Source: Streptomyces sp. HNM0575
GTDB taxonomy: Bacteria; Actinomycetota; Actinomycetes; Streptomycetales; Streptomycetaceae
DNA length: 64,000 nt
Reading direction: 5' to 3'
NCBI RefSeq assembly: GCF_012726265.1
Contig: NZ_JAASAG010000014.1
Coordinates: 1-64,000 of the forward strand
Shown here in pieces: positions 8,765-64,000 of this stretch. Positions within the stretch are counted from its first letter, which is position 1; each line of letters opens with the position of its first letter. The notes under the pieces were generated by a model. It had not been told where the DNA came from. It made no database searches and saw only the letters and a program-made list of their open reading frames with translations. The position numbers were made by a program, and so were the translations under genes.

Positions 8765-11700
8765 CTGCGGTCACCCGCTCTCCCCGCCTCCTGCGCCGCC
8801 CTGCCCGTCTGCTGCTCCCTCCCCGTCCTGCGTGCCTGCTCCTCGGCCTCCTCCGCGCACAGCCGGTGCACATGGGCCGCGTACGTACGGACGGTGGGAT
8901 GGCCGAAGAGGTCGATCATGCGCAGCCGGGACAGGCCGAAGTCCTCGGCGACCCGCTGGTGGATGAGCGTGACGTGCAGCGACGCACCGCCGATGTCGAA
9001 GAGCCGCTCGTCGGGGTCGAGGGTGTCGACCGTGACGACGTCGCACCAGATCCTGGTGATCCGGTCCTGTACGGACTCCAGACCGGGAGCGGCGGGACCG
9101 GCAGGAGCGGCGGCACCCGGGGCGCCGGAGCCGCGGGAATCCGCGTCCGCCGCATCCGGCTCGCGCCCCGACTCCACGGCGTCCGGCGCCGCCCCGGCAC
9201 CCGGCGCTCCCTCGGCGTCCCGCGGCGCCGCGTCCGCTCCACCCGCCGCCGCCGACGGCACCGGCAGCGCCGCCCGGTCGGTCTTGCCGCCCGCGGTGAC
9301 CGGGATGCGCTCCAGCTCGGTCAGCACCCGCGGCACCATGTACGAGGGCAGCCGGTCCGCGGCCAGACGCGTCAACTCCCTTGCGGAGACGGCCCGTCCG
9401 GGCGCCGTCGTGTAGTACGCGGCCAGATACGGGCTGCCGGGACGGTCCTCGCGCCTTATCACCACGGCGTGCGTCACGTCCGGATGCGCACGCAGGGCGG
9501 CCTCGACGTCCCCCGGCTCGACGCGGAAGCCGTACAGCTTGATCTGCTCGTCGCCCCGGCCCACGTAGTCGACCGTGCCGTCCGGGCGCCAGCGGACGAG
9601 GTCGCCGGTGGCGTAGAGCCGTTCGCCCGGCGGCCCGTACGGATCCTCGGTGAAGCGCTCGGCCGTCGCCTCGGGACGGCCCAGATAGCCGTCGGCCAAC
9701 CCCGGCCCGCCCAGGTGCAGTTCGCCGACGATCCCGACGGGCACCGGCTGCCCGTGCGGGTCGAGGACACGTACCCGGGTGTTGGGCGTGGGACGGCCGA
9801 TCGGCACCGGCGCGGTCACGTCGGGCACGTCCTCGGGGCCGTTCATGACGTAGTACGTGGCGTAGGTGGTGGCCTCGGTCGGCCCGTACGCATTGATCAG
9901 CCGCATCCCCGGCGCCGCTTCGAGCGCGGCCGCGGCCAGCGCCGGATTGAGCACCTCGCCGCCCACGATCAGTGTGTGCAGCCCGCGCAGCGAGGAGGGC
10001 TCGGTCTCCGCCTGGCGGTGGAAGAGCGCCGTGGGCATGTCGGCGTGCGTGACCTCGTGCCGTGCCATGTGCGCGGCCAGCGCGTCCGGAGTCATGGGCC
10101 CCGTCGGTGGCAGTACGAGCCGTCCGCCGTTGCCGAGCGTGCCCCACATGTCGAAGGTGACGAGGTCGAAGGAGAGCGACGCCGTGAGCAGCAGCCGTGC
10201 GTCTCCGTCGACACCGGCCCAGCGCGGCGCGCCGAGCGCCAGGTCGACGACGGCGCTGTGCGGGATCTGCACGCCCTTGGGCCTCCCCGTGGAGCCCGAC
10301 GTGTAGATGACGTAGGCGATGTCGTCGCCGCGCACGGCGACCGTCGGCGCCCGTGCGGGGCTGCCGCCGATCGCGGCCCGGTCCTCTTCGAGCAGCCCGG
10401 TGGTGAGTTCGACGACGAGGTCCGCGTCCTCCGCCATGAAGGAGAGCCGGTGCTCGGGATAGGCGGGGTCGAGCGGCACGTACGCGGCACCGGTCTTGAG
10501 CACCGCGAGGAAGGCCGCCACCGCGTCGGTGCCGCGCGGCAGCCGCACGCCGACGCGGGTACCGGGCTCCGCGCCCCGCTCGGCGAGATAGTGGGCCAAC
10601 CGGTCGGCCCTGCCGACCAGTTCGCGGTAGGTGAGCGTCTCCGGCTCCTCGTCGCCCGACACCAGGGCGACGGCGTCCGGGGTGGACTCCCCCCAGCGGC
10701 CGACCAGTTCGTGCACGGCGGTCGCCGCGCCCGCCGTGCCGTGCGGTGCGGCGGAGGGCGGCCCGCCCGCGAACGTGCCGAGGATCTGGGCCTGTTCGGC
10801 CCCGGTGAGCATCGGCAGCCGCCGTACGGGCAGCCCGGGATCGGCGACGGCCGACTCCAGCAGCGTGCGGAAGTGCCCGAGCAGCCGCTCCACGGTCGTC
10901 GCGCGGAACAGGTCGGTGCTGTACTCCGCCGTCAGCCGCAGCCCGCCGCCGGGGTCGGGGATGAGGTTGACGGTCAGGTCGAACTTGGCGATGCCCGTGT
11001 CGTAGTACTCGAAGTCCGACTCGATGCCCGCGAACGTCATCTCGTGCCGGTAGACGTCCTCCGGCACCAGGCACACCTGGAGGTAGGGGTTCTCCGCCTG
11101 CGACTGCCTGTGCAGCTCCTCCAGCAGCAGGCCGTACGGGACCTGCTGGTGGGCGTAGGCGTCGGTGACGGTCCGCCGGGTGCGGGCGAGCAACTGCCGG
11201 AAGTCCGGGCCGTCGTCGGTGCCCCGGTCCGTCGCCGTTTCCGTGCCCTCCTGACTCCCGTGCTCCCCGCCGCCCAGATCGGCCCGCAGCGGCAGCATGT
11301 TGAGGTAGTAGCCGACGGAGCGTGCGGTGCGCGGGTGGTCGCGGCCGGAGAAGGGCGCCCCGGCCACCACGTCCTCGGTGCCGCAGTACCGCGACAGCAG
11401 TATGTGCAGCGCCGCGAGGAAGGCGCTGTAGCGCGTCGCCCCCGCCGAGTGGGCCAACTCGTCAATCCGCTCGGTCAGTTCGCGCGACAGCCGGCCTCGT
11501 ACGAGCGCGCCTTGGCCCGAAGGCGTCCGCGGCCGGGGGAAGTCGGCCGGCAGGTCCATGGTCTCCGGCAGCCCTTCGAGCTGCCTGCGCCAGTACGCCA
11601 CGTCCTCGTCCAGATGGCCGCCGGAGACCGACTCCTGCTGCCAGAGCGCGAATTCGGCGTACTGCCCCTCGGGCGGACCGAGCCCGGACGCCTCACCCGT

Positions 11701-54637: not shown

Positions 54638-56170
54638 TCAGCCCCGGCCCGCCGGGCCCTCCCGGTCCGCCGGATCCGCGGGGCCTCCCGGCGCCGACGT
54701 GGGCGACGCGGACGGCGGCGCCGGCTCCGGCCCAAGTGACGGCGCCTCGCGGATGCCGAAGCGGTGACGCAGCGCGGAGAGCGCCGCGAGGTGGCCGCAC
54801 ATTCCGTGCACGCCCGGCCCGGGCGGCGTCGACGCCGAGCACAGGAAGACCCCGGGCAGCGGGGTGCGCCACGGGTCGAGGCGTGGGACGGGCCGGGCGA
54901 CCGACTGGTACAGCGTCATCGCACCGGCACCGATGTCGCCGCCCCTGTAGTTGGGGTTGTACGTCTCCAGGTCGCCGGCGGGCACGCCGCGCGCCGCGAG
55001 GACGGTGTCGGAGAAGCCCGGCGCGTACTTCTCGACGCGTGAGCGCACCAGGTCGACCGGGTCGCGCGGATCGCCGTTCGGCACGTGCGCGTACGCCCAC
55101 ACGGGACGCCTGCCCTCGCGTGCGCGCCCGGGGTCGGTGGCCGCCGGGTCGACGAGCAGTACGAACGGCTCGCCGGTGGGTGTGCCCCGTACCGTCAGCC
55201 CTTCCTGGCGGGCGATCGCGGTGTGGCTTCCGCCGAGGTGGACGGTGCCGGCGCGCCCCACCTCCGGGTTGGTCCACGGGATCGGACCGGAGACCAGGAA
55301 GTCGGCCTTCGCGGCGCCCGGCCCGTAGCGGAAGCGCCTCAACTGCCGTGCGTAGCGCGCCGGGAGGCGGTCCCCGGCGAGGCGGAGCAGCTGGTCGGGC
55401 CCGGTGTCGAGGAGGACGGCGCGGGCGTGGTCCAGCTCGTGCAGGGAGGTGATGAGGGAGCCGGTGTGGAGGGTGCCGCCGTGTGCGCGTACGTCGTCGG
55501 CCATGGCGTGCGCGATGCGTTCGCTGCCGCCGCGCGGCAGCGGCCAGCCCGCGCCGTGCGCGAGCTGGCCCAGCAGCATCGCCACCGCGTCCGAGGCGAG
55601 GGACGGCAGCTTGCCCACGGCGTGCGCGGCGACCCCGGTGAGCAGCGCCGGCGCGACATCGCCGCGGAAGCCCCGGATCAGCCGGCGGGGCAGCAGCCGT
55701 GCCGCCAGCAGCAGCGGCGCGACGGGGTCGCCGGGCAGGGAGCGCTGGCCGTCCATGAAGAAGTCGACCAGCCCGGTGGAGTGTTCGAGCAGCGGTTCCA
55801 TCAGCTGCCGCCAGCGCGGCCCGTCGGCGCCGAGGCCGTCGCACGTGGCGTCGAGACCGGGGAAGGCGAGGCCCGCGCGCCCGTCGTCGAGCGGATGCGC
55901 GTAACCGATGTCGGGGCCGATCAGTTCGACCCCGCGCGCCGCGAGGTCGAACTCCCGGAAGAATCGCGACGCGGCGGCCATCGGATGGACGGCCGAGCAC
56001 ACGTCGTGCCGGATGTCGCCGTCGAAGTACGCCTCGCAGCGCAGGCCGCCGCCCACGGACCCGGCGGCCTCGTGCATCTCGACCCGCAGACCCGCGCGGG
56101 CCAGAGTCACCGCCGCCGCGAGGCCGTTCGGGCCGCTGCCGACGACCGCCGCGTCGACGGTGTACGTCAC
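54638..56170 (-). CDS. Phytoene-desaturase-like FAD oxidoreductase (last gene of the linaridin-like locus)
   Basis: This 510-aa flavoprotein has the dinucleotide-binding AAVVGSGPNGLAAAVTLARAGL and the C-terminal FAD-contact PGPGVHGMCGHLAALSAL of phytoene-desaturase-like amine oxidases, ending in a Pro/Ser/Ala-rich tail. It lacks carotenoid neighbours. Instead it overlaps the exporter gene by GTGA (start 56170, exporter stop 56167), so it belongs to the same operon as the precursor peptides. Some linaridin clusters encode such an oxidoreductase, with redox tailoring as the probable job; this family assignment is from memory. Confidence 0.8.
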   Translation of the reverse strand: MTYTVDAAVVGSGPNGLAAAVTLARAGLRVEMHEAAGSVGGGLRCEAYFDGDIRHDVCSAVHPMAAASRFFREFDLAARGVELIGPDIGYAHPLDDGRAGLAFPGLDATCDGLGADGPRWRQLMEPLLEHSTGLVDFFMDGQRSLPGDPVAPLLLAARLLPRRLIRGFRGDVAPALLTGVAAHAVGKLPSLASDAVAMLLGQLAHGAGWPLPRGGSERIAHAMADDVRAHGGTLHTGSLITSLHELDHARAVLLDTGPDQLLRLAGDRLPARYARQLRRFRYGPGAAKADFLVSGPIPWTNPEVGRAGTVHLGGSHTAIARQEGLTVRGTPTGEPFVLLVDPAATDPGRAREGRRPVWAYAHVPNGDPRDPVDLVRSRVEKYAPGFSDTVLAARGVPAGDLETYNPNYRGGDIGAGAMTLYQSVARPVPRLDPWRTPLPGVFLCSASTPPGPGVHGMCGHLAALSALRHRFGIREAPSLGPEPAPPSASPTSAPGGPADPADREGPAGRG

Positions 56171-58380
56171 CGGGGCCCGCCGACGGGCGTGCCGTCCCGC
56201 GTGGACGCGGGCGTGGACGCACCGTCGCCGTTCTGCCCCGCCGCACCCGCCGCGCCCGCCGCACCCGCCGCGCCCGCCGCGCCGGACGGGTCCGTGGGCC
56301 AGGAGGCCGCCGAAGTGGCCGCCTGTAGCTGGGAGTTGGCGAGCCGGTAGTAGAGCGGGTCCCGCTTCACCAGTTCCTCGTGCTTGCCGCTGGCCTGCAC
56401 ACGGCCCTCGTTCATCACCACGATGGTGTCGGCGTCGACGACGGTCGAGATGCGGTGCGCGATCGCGATCACCGCGCAGCGGGCCGAGACCTTGCGCAGG
56501 GTTTCGCGGAACTCCCGCTCGGAGTCGGAGTCGAGATGCGACGTCGCCTCGTCGAGCAGGAGCACCGCCGGCTTCTGGAGCAGGGCGCGTGCGATGCACA
56601 GCCGCTGCCGCTGCCCGCCGGACAAGCCGCTTCCCTGGTCGCCCAGTTCGGTGTCGAGGCCCGCGGGCAGCTCCTCGACGACCTTGGTGAGACCCGCCAG
56701 TTCGATGACCTCGCGGATGTCCTGCTCGCGGGCCTCGGGCTGGGCGTAGACGACGTTCTCGCGCACGGTGCCGCGCATCGCCGCGGTGTCCTGCTGTACG
56801 TAGCCGACGAGCCCGCGGAGCGTGGCCAGCGGCATCGTCTCGATGTCCTTGCCGCCGACGGCGATGCTTCCGGAGTCCAGCGCGTGGAAGCGTTCGATCA
56901 GCTGGAAGAGCGTGGTCTTGCCCGCGCCGGACGGGCCGACCACCGCGGTCATTCCGCGGGAGGCGACGGAGAAGGTGATGTCGGAGAGCGTCGCCGCCCG
57001 CTCCGCGGCCTGTTCGCCGTTCGCGCCGGCCGCGCCCCCACCGCCCGCGTCCTTGCCGCCGTACGTGAAGTGCACCCCGCGGAACTCGACGGCGTACTGG
57101 TCCGCCGAGAGCGAGGACTTGGCGGGCGGCGGCTTCGGCCGGTGCCGCATCCTGTCGAGCACGCCGCCCTCCTGCGGGAGGGTGGTGAGTTCGTCGACCC
57201 TGCGGATCGCGGCCCGTCCCTGCTGGAACTGGCCGATGGCCAGGAAGAAGAGCACCAGCGGGGAGACCATGTAGAAGAGATACATCACGAAGGCGGTGAG
57301 GTCCGCCATCGACATCGTCCCGCGGGTGACCCGGGTCATGCCGACGCCGACGACGACGGCGAGCGCCGCCTGCGTACCGACGTTCATGGCAGGCATGAAC
57401 AGCGCGTTGAGGCCGTTGACCCGCACCCCGGAGTTACGGGCCCGCCAGGCCAGCAGGCCGATCCGGTGCGTCTCGCGGTCCTCAGCGCGGGAGGCCTTCA
57501 CCGTGGGCAGCGCGGACAGCGCCCGCTGCACGTCCGAGCCGTATGCGCTGGTGTCCTCGCGGTTGACGACGGCGGCCTTGCGGACGCTGCGCGCCAGCAC
57601 CAGCGAGACGCCGCTGGCGATGCCGAGGCAGGCCAGCGTGATGAGCATCATCCACACGTCGATCAGGAACATCACGACGACGCCGCCGACCACCGTGAAT
57701 CCGTTGATCACCAGCTGCGCCAGGCTCTGCGACAGCGCGATCTTCGCGAGTGAGGTGTCGGCGACCGTACGCGTCAGCACGTCGCCCTGCTGCTGCTTGC
57801 CGTACGCGGCCAGATCGACGCGCAGCAGCCGCTTGGTGAGCAGCATCCGCACGTCGTACACGACGTTCTCGCCCGCGCGTCCGATCAGATACGACTGGAG
57901 CGCCGAGAAGCCGCCGTCGACGCAGAACAGCGCCACGAGGACGAGGACCGCCGCCGTCAGCGGCTTGTGCGCACCGGCCTGCTTGATCAACTCTCCGATC
58001 GCGTACGGCTGGGCGAGCTGCGCCGTCACGCCGACGAGGCCGATGACGATGCCCGCGAGAAGCAGCCCCCGGTGGCGCCGCGCCAGGTACCAGACGGCTG
58101 CCGGACCGTTTCCGCCACCCCGTCTGCGTGCGTGGGCCGGGCCGAGGTGCGCCTCCAGCGGTTCGTCGGCGCGGAGCGTCCGGGAACCGGAGCCCGGGTC
58201 CGGAGCCGGACCGGAACCGGAACCGGACCCCGTGCCGGAGCCGGATCCCGCGCCGGAGCCGGATCCCGCACCGGAGCCGGATCCCGCACCGGAGCCGGGA
58301 CCGCGGCCCGTGCCGGATTCGCGCCCCTCGCCCGAACTCGCCGCGTCCTGCGTGTCCTTCGCCTCCAGGGTGCTGCTCAT
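56167..58380 (-). CDS. linT: ABC exporter of the linaridin-like locus (fused membrane/ATPase)
   Basis: This 737-aa half-transporter starts with an 80-residue Gly/Ser-rich stretch (GSGAGSGSGAGSG), then six membrane helices (about 95-400) and a nucleotide-binding domain with Walker A GPSGAGKTT, LSGGQRQR signature and VLLLDEATSHLD. No C39 peptidase domain is present at the N-terminus, so it would export the peptide but not cut the leader. The C-terminus is again Gly/Ala-rich. It lies 7 bp after the methyltransferase gene and overlaps the oxidoreductase, giving a tight operon. Confidence 0.85.
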   Translation of the reverse strand: MSSTLEAKDTQDAASSGEGRESGTGRGPGSGAGSGSGAGSGSGAGSGSGTGSGSGSGPAPDPGSGSRTLRADEPLEAHLGPAHARRRGGGNGPAAVWYLARRHRGLLLAGIVIGLVGVTAQLAQPYAIGELIKQAGAHKPLTAAVLVLVALFCVDGGFSALQSYLIGRAGENVVYDVRMLLTKRLLRVDLAAYGKQQQGDVLTRTVADTSLAKIALSQSLAQLVINGFTVVGGVVVMFLIDVWMMLITLACLGIASGVSLVLARSVRKAAVVNREDTSAYGSDVQRALSALPTVKASRAEDRETHRIGLLAWRARNSGVRVNGLNALFMPAMNVGTQAALAVVVGVGMTRVTRGTMSMADLTAFVMYLFYMVSPLVLFFLAIGQFQQGRAAIRRVDELTTLPQEGGVLDRMRHRPKPPPAKSSLSADQYAVEFRGVHFTYGGKDAGGGGAAGANGEQAAERAATLSDITFSVASRGMTAVVGPSGAGKTTLFQLIERFHALDSGSIAVGGKDIETMPLATLRGLVGYVQQDTAAMRGTVRENVVYAQPEAREQDIREVIELAGLTKVVEELPAGLDTELGDQGSGLSGGQRQRLCIARALLQKPAVLLLDEATSHLDSDSEREFRETLRKVSARCAVIAIAHRISTVVDADTIVVMNEGRVQASGKHEELVKRDPLYYRLANSQLQAATSAASWPTDPSGAAGAAGAAGAAGAAGQNGDGASTPASTRDGTPVGGPR

Positions 58381-58387
58381 GCCGGTG

Positions 58388-59146
58388 TCACCTCGCCGTG
58401 TAGGTGCTGACGAACATGGGGGAGTCCTCCGCCCAGGGCGTCTCCTGCCAGTCCGCCCAGCGGTCGGCCGGCTTCAGCCCGGCGGCGGCCGCGTACTCGT
58501 CCACCTCCTCCGGCGTGGTGAGCCGCGCCAGTTCGGATCCGACGGAGGACCTGCCGTCCTCGAACCAGATGTGCGACGCGTGCCACAGGCGCTTCTCCTC
58601 GAAGACCGTGGAGTACGTCAGCAGCCCGGTGTTCGGCTCCGGATAGGGGATGAAGTACGAGGTGCGCTGCTGCCCCTCGTGCAGGGCGCGCAGCCCGCCC
58701 GGGTTGGAGGTCTCCACGACCAGCGTGCCGCCGGGCGCGAGCCGGTCCGCGGCGCACCGCATCGCGGCCCGCTGGTCGTCGGGGTCGAGGAGCATGGAGA
58801 AGGTCGCGCAGACGCAGTAGACGAGTCCGTACCGCGCGTCGTCGGTGTACTTGCGGATGTCGCCGTGCACCGCCTCCACGTCGGCGTCGGCCTCCTTCGC
58901 CTTCGTCCGCAGCTGCTGGAGCATCTCGGGCGAGGAGTCGACGCCGGTGACGGGGAAGGCCCGCCGGGCCAGGGGTATCGCCACCCGGCCGGTGCCCACG
59001 CCGAGTTCAAGGGCGCGTTCACCGGGGCTGGGGTGCAGGTCGGCGAGCTTGCGTACGGTCGGCTCGGTGTAGGCGCCGCTCGGAAAGATCCGGTCGTAGA
59101 AGTCTCCGAACTGCCGCCCGTAGCCTATGTCGTCCACAGAACTCAT
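58388..59146 (-). CDS. linM: SAM-dependent methyltransferase (LinM-like candidate)
   Basis: This 252-aa class I methyltransferase has motif I LELGVGTGRVAIPLA, motif II VTGVDSSPEML, and VYCVCATFSMLL followed by LAPGGTLVVET. Linaridins such as cypemycin are N,N-dimethylated at the first residue of the core by a methyltransferase encoded in the cluster, so this is the obvious candidate for that reaction. I use the ATG at 59146, which has GAGAGGGGG upstream, and not the GTG three bases earlier. Confidence 0.8.
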   Translation of the reverse strand: MSSVDDIGYGRQFGDFYDRIFPSGAYTEPTVRKLADLHPSPGERALELGVGTGRVAIPLARRAFPVTGVDSSPEMLQQLRTKAKEADADVEAVHGDIRKYTDDARYGLVYCVCATFSMLLDPDDQRAAMRCAADRLAPGGTLVVETSNPGGLRALHEGQQRTSYFIPYPEPNTGLLTYSTVFEEKRLWHASHIWFEDGRSSVGSELARLTTPEEVDEYAAAAGLKPADRWADWQETPWAEDSPMFVSTYTAR

Positions 59147-59208
59147 CACGGCCCCCTCTCGGTCTCGTTGTGCGGGCCTTCCGCTGTGCTTCCTTGCCTG
59201 CCGTGCCG

Positions 59209-59301
59209 TTACTTCTTCTTGCTGTTCTTCGAGACGTTCAGCGCGATCGCGGCGACGATCACGATGGCGATGACGGAGATGACGATCGAGCCGGTGGACA
59301 T
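59209..59301 (-). CDS. 30-aa membrane peptide within the linaridin-like locus
   Basis: This ORF encodes a 30-aa peptide: MSTGSIVISVIAIVIVAAI, one continuous hydrophobic helix, followed by a short tail ending KNSKKK. GGAAGGGG lies about nine bases before the ATG, and spacing to the neighbours (62 bp after, 82 bp before) fits an operon member. It is too short for the usual ORF thresholds. It could be an immunity peptide, a small subunit of the LinH/LinL membrane complex, or unrelated; no homologue is recalled with certainty. An in-frame ATG at 59307 is less well placed. Confidence 0.68.
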   Translation of the reverse strand: MSTGSIVISVIAIVIVAAIALNVSKNSKKK

Positions 59302-59383
59302 GTGCATCGACCCCTTCCGGGTTCCGGTCGGTGATTCACCCGCCGCCGCGGCAGCGGAGGCGGACGTGTGGTGCGTGCCTGGA

Positions 59384-60073
59384 TCAGGCCGGTCGTGCGG
59401 GGACCTCCCCGCGTGAGTCGTCGCGTATGTGCGAGTCGTAGGAGGGCCGTGCGGAGCCGGGGACGCCGGTCCCGTGGCCGCCCGCCTCGCCGGGCCCGGC
59501 CATCGGGGTGTACGGGGAGACGAAGACGATCTCCGGGTCGGTCTCCTCGTAGCCGGTGGCCCGTACGAGCGTGAACTGGAAGCCCTTCACGCCCTCCGCC
59601 GCGCCGTCCTCGCGGATGCGGTGGCGCAGATACGCGCAGAGCATCCGGTAGGAGGGCAGCTTCTTCATCCCGCCGAAGCCCTTGTCGAGCTGGGTGGTCA
59701 GCTCGGTGACGATGTCGAAGACGGCCTTCTCGGGCCTGCGGCCCGGGAACCAGAGCATCTGCGCCTTCCTGCGGCCGACGATGACCTGCACCATCCGCCA
59801 AGAGGACGTCTCCCCTTCGTCGTTCAGCGTCCGGTAGAGGATGTGGTAGTCGTGTTGCGCCGGAGTGGGCGCGAAGAAGCGCCAGTTGGGGAAGAGCGCC
59901 GAGAAGATGTCCATCTTCTGCGCCCTGTTGAACAGCGGATTCGGATGCTGCGCCGAGAGCGTGCCCAGCAGCAGGGCGGCCCCTGCGGCCCGGGTGAGAC
60001 CGCCCGGCCCGGTGAAGGCGCGGGAGAGAGCCCTGGGGATGCTCCCCCTCGCTGCGCTCGGGGTGCTCTTCAT
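59384..60073 (-). CDS. linL: LinL-like protein
   Basis: This 229-aa protein starts at an ATG overlapping the linH stop (ATGA) and preceded by GAGGAGG. It has one probable N-terminal membrane segment (LTRAAGAALLLGTLSAQ) followed by FSALFPNWRFFAPTPAQHDYHILYRTLNDEGE, a motif also seen at the end of HTTM/vitamin K carboxylase-like membrane proteins. The C-terminal third is soluble. In linaridin systems LinL pairs with LinH and both are needed for dehydration; the biochemical role is still unclear. The frame is open upstream within linH but only from ATG 60073 does it make sense. Confidence 0.68.
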   Translation of the reverse strand: MKSTPSAARGSIPRALSRAFTGPGGLTRAAGAALLLGTLSAQHPNPLFNRAQKMDIFSALFPNWRFFAPTPAQHDYHILYRTLNDEGETSSWRMVQVIVGRRKAQMLWFPGRRPEKAVFDIVTELTTQLDKGFGGMKKLPSYRMLCAYLRHRIREDGAAEGVKGFQFTLVRATGYEETDPEIVFVSPYTPMAGPGEAGGHGTGVPGSARPSYDSHIRDDSRGEVPARPA

Positions 60074-61968
60074 CGTGCCTCCTCGGACTGGTTCCCGTCG
60101 GTGCGGCTGACCTCGCCGCCCTGCCGTCCCTCCGCCTCGCGGAGGAAGTCCAGGATCCGGCGCCCCACCTCCCCGCCCAGGCGGGCGTCGGTGAGCATCG
60201 TGTCGTGGTCGGCCCCTTCGATCACTGAGTTGTGCACGACGCGCCCCTCGCCCCTGTGCGCCGCGCCCAACTCGTTGTGCATCAGCAGCTGTTCGGGATC
60301 GCGGTCGACGGTGCGCTGCGCGGACAGCACCAGCGCATGCCCGCCGATCGCGGGCAGGTCCCCGCGGAAGCAGCGGAAGTCGGCCTCCGTGGCGTCCCAT
60401 TCGCGCATCCCGGCCCGCCACATCCTGCTGTCCGCGTACTGCGCGAAGGCCCGGCTGCGCACCTCCGCGGGCAGGTCCTGCACCCACTTGGGACGTACGA
60501 GCGTGGCCCCGAGCCCCGCACGCAGGCTGCGCGTGAACATGTTGAGCCCGTCCTTGAGCCGGTCCGCCGCCTCCTGCTGCTGCTTGGAGCGGGTCAGCTC
60601 GTCCGGGTGGGAGCTGTCGAGGTAGATCACGCCCTTTACGCGGTCGCCGAGTTCGGCGGCGGCGCGCCGCGCGATCTCCCCGCCCAGCGAGTGGCCGGCC
60701 AGATACACCTCACGGCCGTCGGCCACCGCTCCGCCGACCAGGTCGACCAGATCGTCGACCGACTCCTGGAGGGAGTACGCGCCGCCGCTGCGGCGCCTGC
60801 TCGGGCCGTAACCGGCCCGGCTGTAGCTGATGATCCCGTAGTCGCTCTCCTCGACGAGCTTGTCGGTGATCCAGCCGAAGTGCTCCGTCGTGGAGATCAT
60901 GCCGGTGCCGAAGACCAGCACCGGCGACGTCTCGTCCTCGGACACCCGCTCGTTGTAGTGGAGTTCGTTGCCGTGCCGGGAGGTGAGCACCTTCCCGTGC
61001 GGCCACGGGTCGGTGGCCCGCATCCGGCGCATCGCGGCCAGGAAACCCGCAATGGTCGCACCGATGGCGGCCATTGAGGCCGTGGCCTTCAGCATCCGGT
61101 CGTCGCGTCCGGCGACCGCCGGGTGGTCCTTGGGCGCGCTGGTGTACGCGACCATCGGGTGCATCGCCTCGAAGGCGGTGACGAACCGGCCGAGGCCCAT
61201 GAAGTAGCCGTTGGCCACGTGGAAGGCCGCGGCGCTCGCCATGACCGGACGTGCGAGCGCACCGCCCCTTGCGTACGCCACCGGGAAGAGGCACTCCAGG
61301 GCGAGCACCCCGTGCGCCAGGTAACGGGCGGGCACCGGGTGGCGGTTGGTCAGCCTGTACATGCCCTCGTGCCCGTACGTACGGGTGCGCATGATGCCGT
61401 TGAGCGCGGAGCCGTCACGCCAGGGCTCGCCCAGCAGCTTCACCCAGCCGGAGACCAGGTAGGAGAGGTTGGCCTGGAGCGCCACGTACCACAACAGGGC
61501 GTCCTGCACCGCGGGTTGACGTGACATGCGGGCCAGCCCGGCCGCCGTCTGCACGAACGAGGAGACCTGGTCGGAGCCGTCCGTTCCGTAGCGGTGGCGC
61601 GGGTAGAGGGCGGCGTTGCTCACCCCGAGGAAGATGTTGGCGGCGCCCCGCCAGCGGGCGTTTCCGGGGGCCAGCAGCGCGGCGCTCGCCGCGATTCGCG
61701 CGATGTGCAGGGCCTGCGTGGTCCGCTGATTGCCGACGGCGTCGAGAATTCGCCTGGTCGGCCGCGTCGACGACGCGTGCATCTTCCGCGCGATCGTCCA
61801 GTCGTTGAGGCCTCCACGGCGTATCTGCCGCTGGTGGGTGATGTATTCGAGACTCGATGTGAGGGACGTCATCGCCGTCAGCCGCTCCGAAATGGCGAGC
61901 GCACGGCTGCGGGAGATCGGTACCGGCCCCAGAAATGTCGAGGTCAGCTTTTTGGCGAGGGATTTCAC
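60070..61968 (-). CDS. linH: LinH-like membrane/alpha-beta hydrolase fusion
   Basis: This 632-aa protein joins an N-terminal membrane domain (about 1-330, roughly six helices, with a WYVALQANLSYLVSGWVKLLG-EPWRDGSAL region typical of HTTM-like proteins) to a C-terminal alpha/beta hydrolase (about 350-610). The hydrolase part has the nucleophile elbow LAGHSLGGEI, a DSSHPDE segment and the histidine in GADHDTML. This fused architecture is characteristic of LinH in linaridin biosynthesis. GTG 61968 is preceded by GAGGAG. It is the first biosynthetic gene after the precursor peptides and overlaps linL, supporting a LinH/LinL complex in the membrane. Confidence 0.8.
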   Translation of the reverse strand: MKSLAKKLTSTFLGPVPISRSRALAISERLTAMTSLTSSLEYITHQRQIRRGGLNDWTIARKMHASSTRPTRRILDAVGNQRTTQALHIARIAASAALLAPGNARWRGAANIFLGVSNAALYPRHRYGTDGSDQVSSFVQTAAGLARMSRQPAVQDALLWYVALQANLSYLVSGWVKLLGEPWRDGSALNGIMRTRTYGHEGMYRLTNRHPVPARYLAHGVLALECLFPVAYARGGALARPVMASAAAFHVANGYFMGLGRFVTAFEAMHPMVAYTSAPKDHPAVAGRDDRMLKATASMAAIGATIAGFLAAMRRMRATDPWPHGKVLTSRHGNELHYNERVSEDETSPVLVFGTGMISTTEHFGWITDKLVEESDYGIISYSRAGYGPSRRRSGGAYSLQESVDDLVDLVGGAVADGREVYLAGHSLGGEIARRAAAELGDRVKGVIYLDSSHPDELTRSKQQQEAADRLKDGLNMFTRSLRAGLGATLVRPKWVQDLPAEVRSRAFAQYADSRMWRAGMREWDATEADFRCFRGDLPAIGGHALVLSAQRTVDRDPEQLLMHNELGAAHRGEGRVVHNSVIEGADHDTMLTDARLGGEVGRRILDFLREAEGRQGGEVSRTDGNQSEEAR

Positions 61969-62163: not shown

Positions 62164-62197
62164 CCCGGTCGGCCGGTGTCAGGACCGGCCGACCGGG
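62164..62197 (-). terminator. Attenuator-type hairpin between precursor and biosynthetic genes
   Basis: CCCGGTCGGCCGGT and ACCGGCCGACCGGG form a perfect 14-bp stem with a GTCAGG loop, 75 bp after the downstream precursor gene and about 200 bp before linH. RiPP operons commonly use such partial terminators to make more precursor than enzyme. The surrounding 61969-62271 gap contains no convincing gene. Confidence 0.75.
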
Positions 62198-62271: not shown

Positions 62272-62451
62272 TCAGCTGTTGCCCTGCTCGAAGGCGGCAA
62301 CCGTCGCGGAGGCGATGGCGACGCCGCCGAGGAAGGCGCCGGGGGTGCCCATCACCGGGGTGTAGTCGGTGAAGATGACACCCTCGGCGTCGTCGATCCC
62401 GACGGAGGACAGCTCCGCCGTCTCGTTGATGTGCGAGGTCACATCGGTCAT
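62272..62451 (-). CDS. Putative linaridin precursor peptide 1
   Basis: This ORF (59 aa) has AGGAG seven bases before its ATG. The N-terminal part is acidic, containing ELSSVGIDDAEGVIFTD, as expected of a leader. The motif PVMGTP (residues 32-37) fits PxxxTP, the conserved linaridin motif at the leader/core boundary. By analogy with cypemycin, cleavage before G35 would release a 25-residue core that contains GTPGAFLGGVAIA and ends FEQGNS. The core has Thr36 and Thr50 as possible dehydrobutyrine sites, Ser48 and Ser59, and no Cys. It shares GAFxGGxA with the second precursor. It lies 303 bp upstream of linH. Confidence 0.82.
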   Translation of the reverse strand: MTDVTSHINETAELSSVGIDDAEGVIFTDYTPVMGTPGAFLGGVAIASATVAAFEQGNS

Positions 62452-62554
62452 GTGCGCACTCCTGTTCTGTCGGCCGCCCGGGACGTCGCCGTCCGCGGGA
62501 GGGCAAGTGGTCGACGGCCGGACCGAGTTGACCGGCCGCGTCTGGTGCCGGTGG

Positions 62555-62728
62555 TCAGCCGACGGCCTTGCCGGCGGCGTAGGCGCCGGTCACCACGGCC
62601 GCGCCGCCGACGAAGGCGCCCGCGAGAGCGGGGGTGGCGAGGACGGGAGCCGCCTCCTCGGCGATCTCGCCGGCGTGCTCTTCGTGCAGCTGGTCCTGAA
62701 TTTTCAGATTCAGCTTCTCTTCCAGCAT
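62555..62728 (-). CDS. Putative linaridin precursor peptide 2
   Basis: This ORF (57 aa) starts at an ATG with GGAGGAATCAC in front, a near-ideal ribosome binding site. The leader is strongly charged, starting MLEEKLNLKIQDQLHEEHAG. PVLATP at residues 28-33 fits the PxxxTP motif. Predicted cleavage before A31 yields a very hydrophobic 27-residue core starting ATPALAGAFVGGAAVV with only Thr32 and Thr47, no Ser and no Cys. It is the first gene of the operon. A CGGCCGG/CCGGCCG inverted repeat (62515-62538) separates it from precursor 1. Confidence 0.82.
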   Translation of the reverse strand: MLEEKLNLKIQDQLHEEHAGEIAEEAAPVLATPALAGAFVGGAAVVTGAYAAGKAVG

Positions 62729-63336: not shown

Positions 63337-64000
63337 TCAGAGCCAGCCGCGTTCCCGGGCCATGCGCGCGGCCGCGTGCCTGTTCTCCGCACCGAGCTTC
63401 GCGGTCGCCGCCGAGAGGTAGTTGCGCACGGTCCCGGGGGTGAGCGAGACGCGCTCCGCGATCTCCGCCACGGGCGCACCGTTCGCCGCCAGGTTCAGCA
63501 GCTCGGCCTCGCGTGCGGTGAGCGGCGAGTCGCCCGTACTGATCGCGTCGGCCGCCAACTCCGGGTCCACATAACGGGTTCCGGCGTGCACGGCACGGAT
63601 GATCTCCGCGAGCTGCTGCGCCGACGCCGTCTTGGGCACGAAGCCGCGGACGCCCGCGGCGAGCGCACGCTTGAGATGCCCGGGACGCGCGTGACTGGTC
63701 ACGATCATCGTCCGGCAGGCGGGCAGTTCGTCGCGCAGCTCCGTCGCGACCTGCACGCCGTCGGCGCCCGGCATCTGAAGGTCGAGCACGGCCACGTCGG
63801 GTGCGTGCGCACGGGCCATCGCCACCGCCTCCGGTCCGGACGCGGCCTCCGCGACGACCGTCAGGTCCTCCTCCAGCGCGAGCAGCGCGGCCAGGGCGCC
63901 CCGGATCAGATGCTCGTCGTCGGCGAGCAGTACGCGGATGCCGCGGCCCGTGCCGCCACCCGTGCCGCCACTCGCACCACCGCCCGTGCCGCCGGCCGAT
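63337..64000 (-). CDS. LuxR-type (NarL/FixJ) response regulator, 5' end cut by window
   Basis: The open frame runs to the window edge. The receiver domain has IRVLLADDEHLIRG with the acidic pair, the phospho-acceptor aspartate in VAVLDLQMPGADG, and the switch lysine in GFVPKTAS. The C-terminal LuxR HTH is LTAREAELLNLAANGAPVAEIAERVSLTPGTVRNYLSAATAKLGA. A Gly/Thr-rich stretch precedes the receiver, so either the start lies further upstream or a spacer is fused. The pattern is of DesR-like two-component regulators. Its kinase is presumably beyond the edge. A role for the linaridin-like operon is possible by position only. Confidence 0.85.
   Translation of the reverse strand, partial: SAGGTGGGASGGTGGGTGRGIRVLLADDEHLIRGALAALLALEEDLTVVAEAASGPEAVAMARAHAPDVAVLDLQMPGADGVQVATELRDELPACRTMIVTSHARPGHLKRALAAGVRGFVPKTASAQQLAEIIRAVHAGTRYVDPELAADAISTGDSPLTAREAELLNLAANGAPVAEIAERVSLTPGTVRNYLSAATAKLGAENRHAAARMARERGWL

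What the first reader, a model, noticed from the sequence alone, without database searches (positions are those of the whole stretch)
62272..62728. Precursor cores are Thr-poor, Cys-free and glycine/alanine-rich
Known linaridins carry many Thr residues that become dehydrobutyrines, and cypemycin ends in Cys for aminovinylcysteine formation. Here each predicted core has only two Thr and no Cys, but both share GAF[LV]GG[VA]A. At most two dehydrations each are expected, giving long hydrophobic helical peptides. The shared GAFxGG block may be the functional part.
Basis: partly seen in the sequence, partly recalled or inferred. Interest (0 to 1): 0.78.

Follow-up and report, generated by a model that had tools for sequence, protein, structure and literature searches.

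The report
Paired low-threonine linaridin-type peptide precursors
Next to a bacterial peptide-modifying gene cluster lie two tiny genes for a matched pair of alanine/glycine-rich peptides with almost none of the threonines that define the known members of this antibiotic-like family, and the same kind of pair recurs in dozens of actinobacteria, suggesting that the best-studied examples are the exception.

Summary
Window 62555-62728(-) and 62272-62451(-) encode 57- and 59-aa precursors, both with the linaridin PxxxTP motif (PVLATP, PVMGTP). If cut as in cypemycin-type precursors (PVx|xTP), the cores are ATPALAGAFVGGAAVVTGAYAAGKAVG and GTPGAFLGGVAIASATVAAFEQGNS: two Thr each, no Cys; B also has two Ser. 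They head a linaridin-type operon: fused LinH, LinL, N-methyltransferase, ABC exporter, FAD enzyme; the last three are 57-69% identical to those at the locus I take to be legonaridin in Streptomyces sp. CT34. Of 40 loci with identified precursors, 35 carry the same A/B pair. The A core is identical in six Streptomyces species that differ only at synonymous codons. In a survey of 392 Streptomyces genomes, 32 of 39 LinL loci with typable precursors were Thr-poor; 7 were legonaridin or cypemycin types. Two points are new: the precursors form a conserved A/B pair with opposite C-terminal charges, and Thr-poor cores are the majority. Best reading: a Thr-poor, probably two-peptide linaridin variant with few dehydrations. 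Modifications, cleavage and pairing are inferred. I could not read the 2020 survey of 561 linaridin clusters.

The parts
62555..62728 (-). preA, 57-aa A-type precursor; predicted leader residues 1-30, motif PVLATP
   Evidence: homologues at most related loci; A core has 0 non-synonymous codon differences in 15 of 15 species pairs
62558..62638 (-). predicted A core ATPALAGAFVGGAAVVTGAYAAGKAVG (27 aa, 2 Thr, 0 Ser, 0 Cys)
   Evidence: cut placed by homology to PAM|ATP of cypemycin-type precursors (that the cypemycin core starts ATP is from my own knowledge) and by the PxxxTP motif (PMC9927463); not shown experimentally
62272..62451 (-). preB, 59-aa B-type precursor; predicted leader residues 1-34, motif PVMGTP
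   Evidence: sub-threshold match to NF033402 linaridin_RiPP (12.9 bits, cut-off 35); homologues at most related loci
62275..62349 (-). predicted B core GTPGAFLGGVAIASATVAAFEQGNS (25 aa, 2 Thr, 2 Ser, 0 Cys)
   Evidence: as for core A; inferred cleavage site
62164..62197 (-). hairpin with a 14-bp perfect stem between preB and linH; candidate partial terminator or processing site
   Evidence: 14-bp stem versus at most 8 bp in 20 shuffles; perfect stems of 10 bp or more in the same interval in many, not all, related loci
60070..61968 (-). linH: fused HTTM-type membrane domain (about residues 1-292) and alpha/beta-hydrolase domain (GHSLGG nucleophile motif)
   Evidence: hydrolase by Pfam and PDB fold match; HTTM assignment by homology to the cypemycin-type fused LinH and to separate HTTM-like genes at legonaridin-type loci
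59384..60073 (-). linL (229 aa, ATG 60073), the linaridin hallmark protein
   Evidence: 15 invariant columns across 41 homologues including that of the CT34 legonaridin-type locus; weak DUF5819
59209..59307 (-). 32-aa single-membrane-span peptide ending KKK
   Evidence: similar short ORFs at the same position in several relatives
58388..59149 (-). SAM methyltransferase, predicted N-terminal (di)methylation
   Evidence: 57% identical to the methyltransferase of the CT34 legonaridin-type locus; NF041820 daptide_MTase 93 bits, below its cut-off of 175
56167..58380 (-). ABC transporter/permease, predicted peptide exporter
   Evidence: Pfam; 62% identical to the CT34 legonaridin-type transporter
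54638..56170 (-). FAD-dependent oxidoreductase, phytoene-desaturase-like; step unknown
   Evidence: 69% identical to the FAD enzyme of the CT34 legonaridin-type locus
63337..63999 (-). LuxR-type response regulator (ORF runs off the window), possible pathway regulator
   Evidence: homologue upstream of the precursors in several close relatives

Best explanation
preA and preB are the two precursors of a linaridin-type RiPP. Shown by sequence: related leaders and a conserved PxxxTP motif shared with linaridin precursors; LinH, LinL, methyltransferase, exporter and FAD enzyme in one operon; strong conservation of the A core; an A/B pair at most related loci. Inferred: LinH and LinL act on both cores, dehydrate the near-invariant Thr at core position 2 (giving Xaa-Dhb-Pro) and perhaps the few other Thr/Ser, and may epimerise Ala/Val residues, since GrmL (a LinL) has been proposed as an epimerase; the leader is cut at PVx|xTP; the methyltransferase dimethylates the new N-terminus; the ABC protein exports both. 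Inferred with less certainty: A (Lys/Arg near the C-terminus) and B (Glu/Asp near the C-terminus), each with small-xxx-small motifs, act together as a two-peptide membrane-active pair. So this is a Thr-poor, probably two-component variant of linaridins, and in Streptomyces the commonest kind among the loci I could type.
For: PxxxTP in 72 of 86 precursors. Profile comparison: B versus legonaridin-type precursors probability 91.8, E 7.3e-7; A versus the same 87.0, E 4.1e-6; A versus B 97.3, E 2.5e-11. LinL invariant residues shared with the legonaridin-type homologue. FAD 69%, ABC 62%, MT 57% identical to the legonaridin-type locus of CT34. 35 of 40 loci with A+B. A core under purifying selection. 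K/R at the aligned A position in 19 of 24, E/D at the aligned B position in 22 of 26 of the window clade. GxxxG above shuffled expectation: A 21 versus 11.6, B 20 versus 13.0. In Streptomyces 32 of 39 typed LinL loci are Thr-poor (after removing one spurious hit). GrmL as possible epimerase and N,N-dimethylation in characterised linaridins: PMC10373908.
Against: No precursor passes the curated NCBIfam linaridin cut-offs. No product, mass or activity is known here. Complementary charges fail in the L073-type clade, and some loci have only B-like, only A-like or three to five precursors, so a strict 1:1 pair is not universal. The GxxxG test ignores relatedness. LinL gave no fold match, so no enzyme function is supported by structure. 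The cleavage position rests on homology.
Confidence: 0.68

Rival explanations
1. A and B are independent products of duplicated precursor genes sharing one set of enzymes (a small library), with no cooperation between them.
For: A and B are paralogous. Some loci carry three to five precursors (L060 five, L085 four, L075/L078/L079 three) or only B-like or A-like ones. Complementary charges are missing in the L073-type clade.
Against: 35 of 40 loci keep one of each type, across several actinobacterial genera, and opposite charges are kept in the window clade.
Confidence: 0.35
2. The main work of LinH/LinL on these cores is not dehydration but epimerisation of Ala/Val, giving D-residue-containing hydrophobic peptides; the single TP Thr is kept for recognition or cleavage.
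For: Only the TP Thr is near-invariant. In L057 and L059 even the TP is gone while LinH and LinL remain. GrmL is proposed to be an epimerase and type-A linaridins hold several D-residues (PMC10373908).
Against: In corynaridin all Thr and Ser are dehydrated (PMC9927463). No epimerase evidence for this LinL; no fold match. The GrmL claim was read second-hand in a review.
Confidence: 0.25
3. They are unmodified two-peptide (class IIb-like) bacteriocins or other small membrane peptides, and the linaridin genes serve another precursor.
For: Thr-poor cores; small-xxx-small motifs; two paralogous peptides.
Against: They directly precede linH in the window and in most relatives; leader and PxxxTP are related to legonaridin-type precursors; no other candidate precursor was noticed around the window's linH.
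Confidence: 0.06
4. They are daptide precursors, because the methyltransferase's best NCBIfam match is the daptide methyltransferase.
For: NF041820 is the top hit of the methyltransferase (2e-26); daptide precursors are also hydrophobic and multiple (own knowledge).
Against: Score 93 versus cut-off 175; the methyltransferase is 57% identical to that of the CT34 legonaridin-type locus; the cores end in Gly and Ser, not the C-terminal Thr that daptides need (own knowledge).
Confidence: 0.02

Closest known systems
Legonaridin-type (type B) linaridins; CT34 legonaridin-type locus L098, G319:C1:4619500-4639400
   Same: Same gene set: FAD 69%, ABC 62%, MT 57% identical; LinL and HTTM about 30%; leader and PxxxTP related; no Cys decarboxylase on the window's contig
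   Different: One precursor with 8 Thr in the core versus a pair with 2 Thr each; HTTM and hydrolase are separate genes there but fused here; the LinL tree puts the legonaridin type in a separate clade while the FAD tree intermixes them
Cypemycin/grisemycin-type (type A) linaridins (L105, L188, L189, L201)
   Same: Fused HTTM-hydrolase LinH, LinL, methyltransferase, PAM|ATP cut site like PVL|ATP
   Different: Type A has a C-terminal Cys and a Cys decarboxylase (PMC9927463) and 2-5 Thr in a core of about 24 residues; the window has neither Cys nor a decarboxylase nearby
Corynaridin (Corynebacterium lactis)
   Same: Type B, LinL, HTTM protein, alpha/beta hydrolase, PxxxTP cut (PMC9927463)
   Different: 7 Thr and 1 Ser in the core, all dehydrated; no methyltransferase; single precursor
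Class IIb two-peptide bacteriocins
   Same: Works-like only: two small membrane-active peptides with GxxxG motifs (own knowledge)
   Different: No linaridin enzymes there; no activity data here

Membership tests
Linaridin RiPP cluster | LinL homologue | tested here: met
   15 invariant columns shared with the CT34 legonaridin-type LinL
Linaridin RiPP cluster | LinH or its parts: HTTM membrane protein plus alpha/beta hydrolase | tested here: met
   hydrolase; fold; HTTM homology to legonaridin and cypemycin loci
Linaridin RiPP cluster | PxxxTP motif in the precursor | tested here: met
   PVLATP and PVMGTP; 72 of 86 precursors in the set
Linaridin RiPP precursor | Passes curated NCBIfam models NF033402, NF033403 or NF033752 | tested here: not met
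   sub-threshold only
Linaridin RiPP precursor | Core rich in Thr that become dehydrobutyrine | tested here: not met
   2 Thr per core; Thr density about 0.07-0.11 in A/B versus 0.16 in legonaridin and cypemycin types
Linaridin product | Dehydrated residues in the mature peptide | not testable with these tools
   needs mass spectrometry
Type A linaridin | C-terminal Cys and Cys decarboxylase | tested here: not met
   no Cys in either precursor; no PF02441 match on contig C6
Type B linaridin | No decarboxylase; methyltransferase and oxidoreductase as at the legonaridin locus | tested here: met
Daptide | Daptide methyltransferase above cut-off and C-terminal Thr core | tested here: not met
   93 versus 175 bits; cores end in G and S
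Two-peptide bacteriocin | Two peptides needed together for full activity | not testable with these tools
   only indirect: conserved pair, opposite charges

The most novel reading that the evidence does not exclude
A widespread family of two-peptide linaridins in which LinH and LinL chiefly epimerise Ala/Val rather than dehydrate Thr, yielding paired D-residue-containing membrane peptides; the Thr-rich characterised linaridins would then be a derived minority.
Probability: 0.15. Interest if true: 0.85.

Novelty: new variant of a known kind. Interest (0 to 1): 0.6.

Why it matters
Linaridins are described by their dehydrobutyrines and known from a handful of products. Here the commonest typable LinL-bearing clusters in a 392-genome Streptomyces survey encode Thr-poor precursors, mostly in pairs. 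That gives natural substrates with only one or two dehydratable residues, which would let the unresolved roles of LinH and LinL (dehydration, epimerisation, leader removal) be separated, and it predicts a class of paired membrane peptides that Thr-based mining would tend to miss.

Tried and rejected
Fold search of LinL: model pLDDT 79.8, no PDB match better than E 0.18, so no function from fold. Curated precursor models do not catch these peptides. NF033403 'linaridin-like RiPP' looked like a possible home for them but matched only legonaridin-type loci, below its cut-off. Daptide and type A readings were tested and rejected. The 2020 survey of 561 linaridin clusters and the 2010 cypemycin paper are not held, so prior description of Thr-poor pairs could not be excluded. 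One 'long' survey hit (L163) came from a masked, Arg-rich stretch and is left out of my counts.

Full report
Observation. The two ORFs are present at the stated places on the - strand. preA, 62555-62728: MLEEKLNLKIQDQLHEEHAGEIAEEAAPVL|ATPALAGAFVGGAAVVTGAYAAGKAVG. preB, 62272-62451: MTDVTSHINETAELSSVGIDDAEGVIFTDYTPVM|GTPGAFLGGVAIASATVAAFEQGNS. The bar marks the predicted cut. Both carry PxxxTP, the motif named as the linaridin cleavage site in the corynaridin paper (PMC9927463). A cypemycin-type precursor found here reads ...CETPAM|ATPATPT; the exact cut before ATP in cypemycin is from my own knowledge. The composition claims are right, except that core B holds two Ser, and Ser is dehydrated in corynaridin, so 'at most two dehydrations' applies to A only.

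Setting. On the same strand follow a fused LinH (60070-61968), LinL (ATG at 60073, overlapping the LinH stop), a 32-aa membrane peptide, a methyltransferase, an ABC exporter and a phytoene-desaturase-like FAD enzyme. CT34 is the strain from which legonaridin is known; a strong NF033402 match lies at G319:C1:4629080, and the surrounding locus L098 has FAD 69%, ABC 62%, MT 57% identity to the window but LinL and HTTM only about 30% and hydrolase 25%. I take L098 to be the legonaridin cluster; I did not check it against the published gene table. The LinL alignment keeps 15 invariant columns across all 41 rows. No Cys-decarboxylase family member lies on the window's contig. This makes the operon type-B-like in gene content, with the fused LinH seen in type A.

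Relatives. One scan of genome contigs with the HTTM alignment gave 44 loci in Streptomyces, Amycolatopsis, Nesterenkonia, Aeromicrobium, Actinacidiphila, Goekera, Paractinoplanes and Micromonospora. From these and the window I read 86 precursors at 40 loci, each confirmed as an exact translation of the locus; the choice of start codons was mine. 35 of 40 loci have an A-type and a B-type. The other five are L053 (two B-like), L055 (B only, contig end), L059 (two unlike either), L062 (one short Thr-rich) and L064 (A only). L049, L065, L070, L071 and L086 gave none in that count: L049 and L070 are cut close upstream of linH, L065 has an odd precursor read later, and I found none for L071 and L086. 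Cores with a recognisable cut: A, n = 38, mean Thr 2.97, 32 without Cys; B, n = 37, mean Thr 2.08, Ser 1.0, 32 without Cys; four legonaridin-type cores, mean Thr 6.0. Several A-type cores of the L073-like clade begin ATPALIATP and hold more Thr than the window's.

Selection. In the six closest species the A core is identical while 2-8 codons per pair differ silently (15 of 15 pairs, no non-synonymous change); B shows 0-4 non-synonymous codons. I read this as purifying selection on the A core.

Kinship of the precursors. Profile comparison joins B to legonaridin-type precursors (91.8, E 7.3e-7), A to them (87.0, E 4.1e-6) and A to B (97.3, E 2.5e-11). The first two alignments rest mainly on leader and PxxxTP. 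None passes the curated NCBIfam models.

How common. A LinL profile built from these loci was run on 392 Streptomyces genomes drawn evenly from the genus. I fetched the regions around the strong hits (with earlier loci) and typed 62 of them by precursor models: 20 A+B, 6 B only, 1 A only, 6 'long', 4 legonaridin-type, 3 cypemycin-type, 22 with none found. One 'long' hit (L163) is spurious, leaving 39 typed, of which 32 are Thr-poor. The Thr densities are 0.065 (B), 0.106 (A), 0.031 (long), 0.162 (legonaridin) and 0.164 (cypemycin). Limits: the A and B models came from the window-like set, the untyped loci are mostly distant LinL and could hold other precursors, the LinL profile itself is built largely from window-like rows, and one genome stands for one species. 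The phylum-wide search found far fewer LinL loci (9 of 396 genomes).

Trees. LinL separates the five legonaridin-type rows from the window type with good support, while in the FAD tree they are intermixed. So LinL differs with precursor class more than the FAD enzyme does. Long branches are flagged in that output, and the HTTM tree was partly cut from the printout.

Pair hypothesis. In the window's clade a Lys/Arg follows GAYxxG-like sequence in 19 of 24 A-types and a Glu/Asp follows A[FY] in 22 of 26 B-types. GxxxG is more frequent than in shuffled cores (A 21 versus 11.6, p 0.0016; B 20 versus 13.0, p 0.019), but related sequences are not independent. I read this as suggestive of two helices that pack together; it is not shown, and the L073-type clade lacks the charge pattern.

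Structure. LinL gave a fair model and no fold match. LinH gave a good model (pLDDT 87.3) whose C-terminal half matches alpha/beta hydrolases.

Conclusion. A real, conserved precursor pair of a linaridin-type cluster, Thr-poor by conservation rather than accident. Modification state, cleavage and activity need experiments. Whether the 2020 survey of 561 linaridin clusters already lists such pairs I could not check.

Noticed in passing
window 62164-62197, between preB and linH: Hairpin with a 14-bp perfect stem (CCCGGTCGGCCGGT); comparable stems in many related loci. A second hairpin with a conserved GTACCCCCTTCTGC-like loop lies nearby in L044-L048.
   Followed up: partly
window 59209-59307 and L044-L052, L056, L069: Short single-span membrane peptide, often ending in Lys residues, between linL and the methyltransferase gene in several relatives; possible immunity or complex subunit.
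   Followed up: partly
L059 / L031 (same genome, Actinobacteria bacterium OK074): Close LinH relative (56-62%) with two tandem precursors lacking PxxxTP, with identical C-termini ACFDAADGGAGVCG holding two Cys.
   Followed up: no
L165, L167, L171, L173, L174: Long Thr-poor precursors with PTLGTP and a 60+ residue Ala/Gly/Asn-rich core beside LinH/LinL.
   Followed up: no
L060 (S. abyssomicinicus): Five tandem precursor-like ORFs upstream of linH.
   Followed up: no
L065 (Streptomyces sp. CT34), about 9730-9890: A 53-aa precursor-like ORF without TP, ending in NINNHGCVVGW, beside linH and linL in the strain that also carries the legonaridin-type locus.
   Followed up: no
L035 (window contig upstream), 5512-7376 -: ABC-2 membrane protein and ATPase genes upstream of the response regulator; could be self-protection, not tested.
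   Followed up: partly
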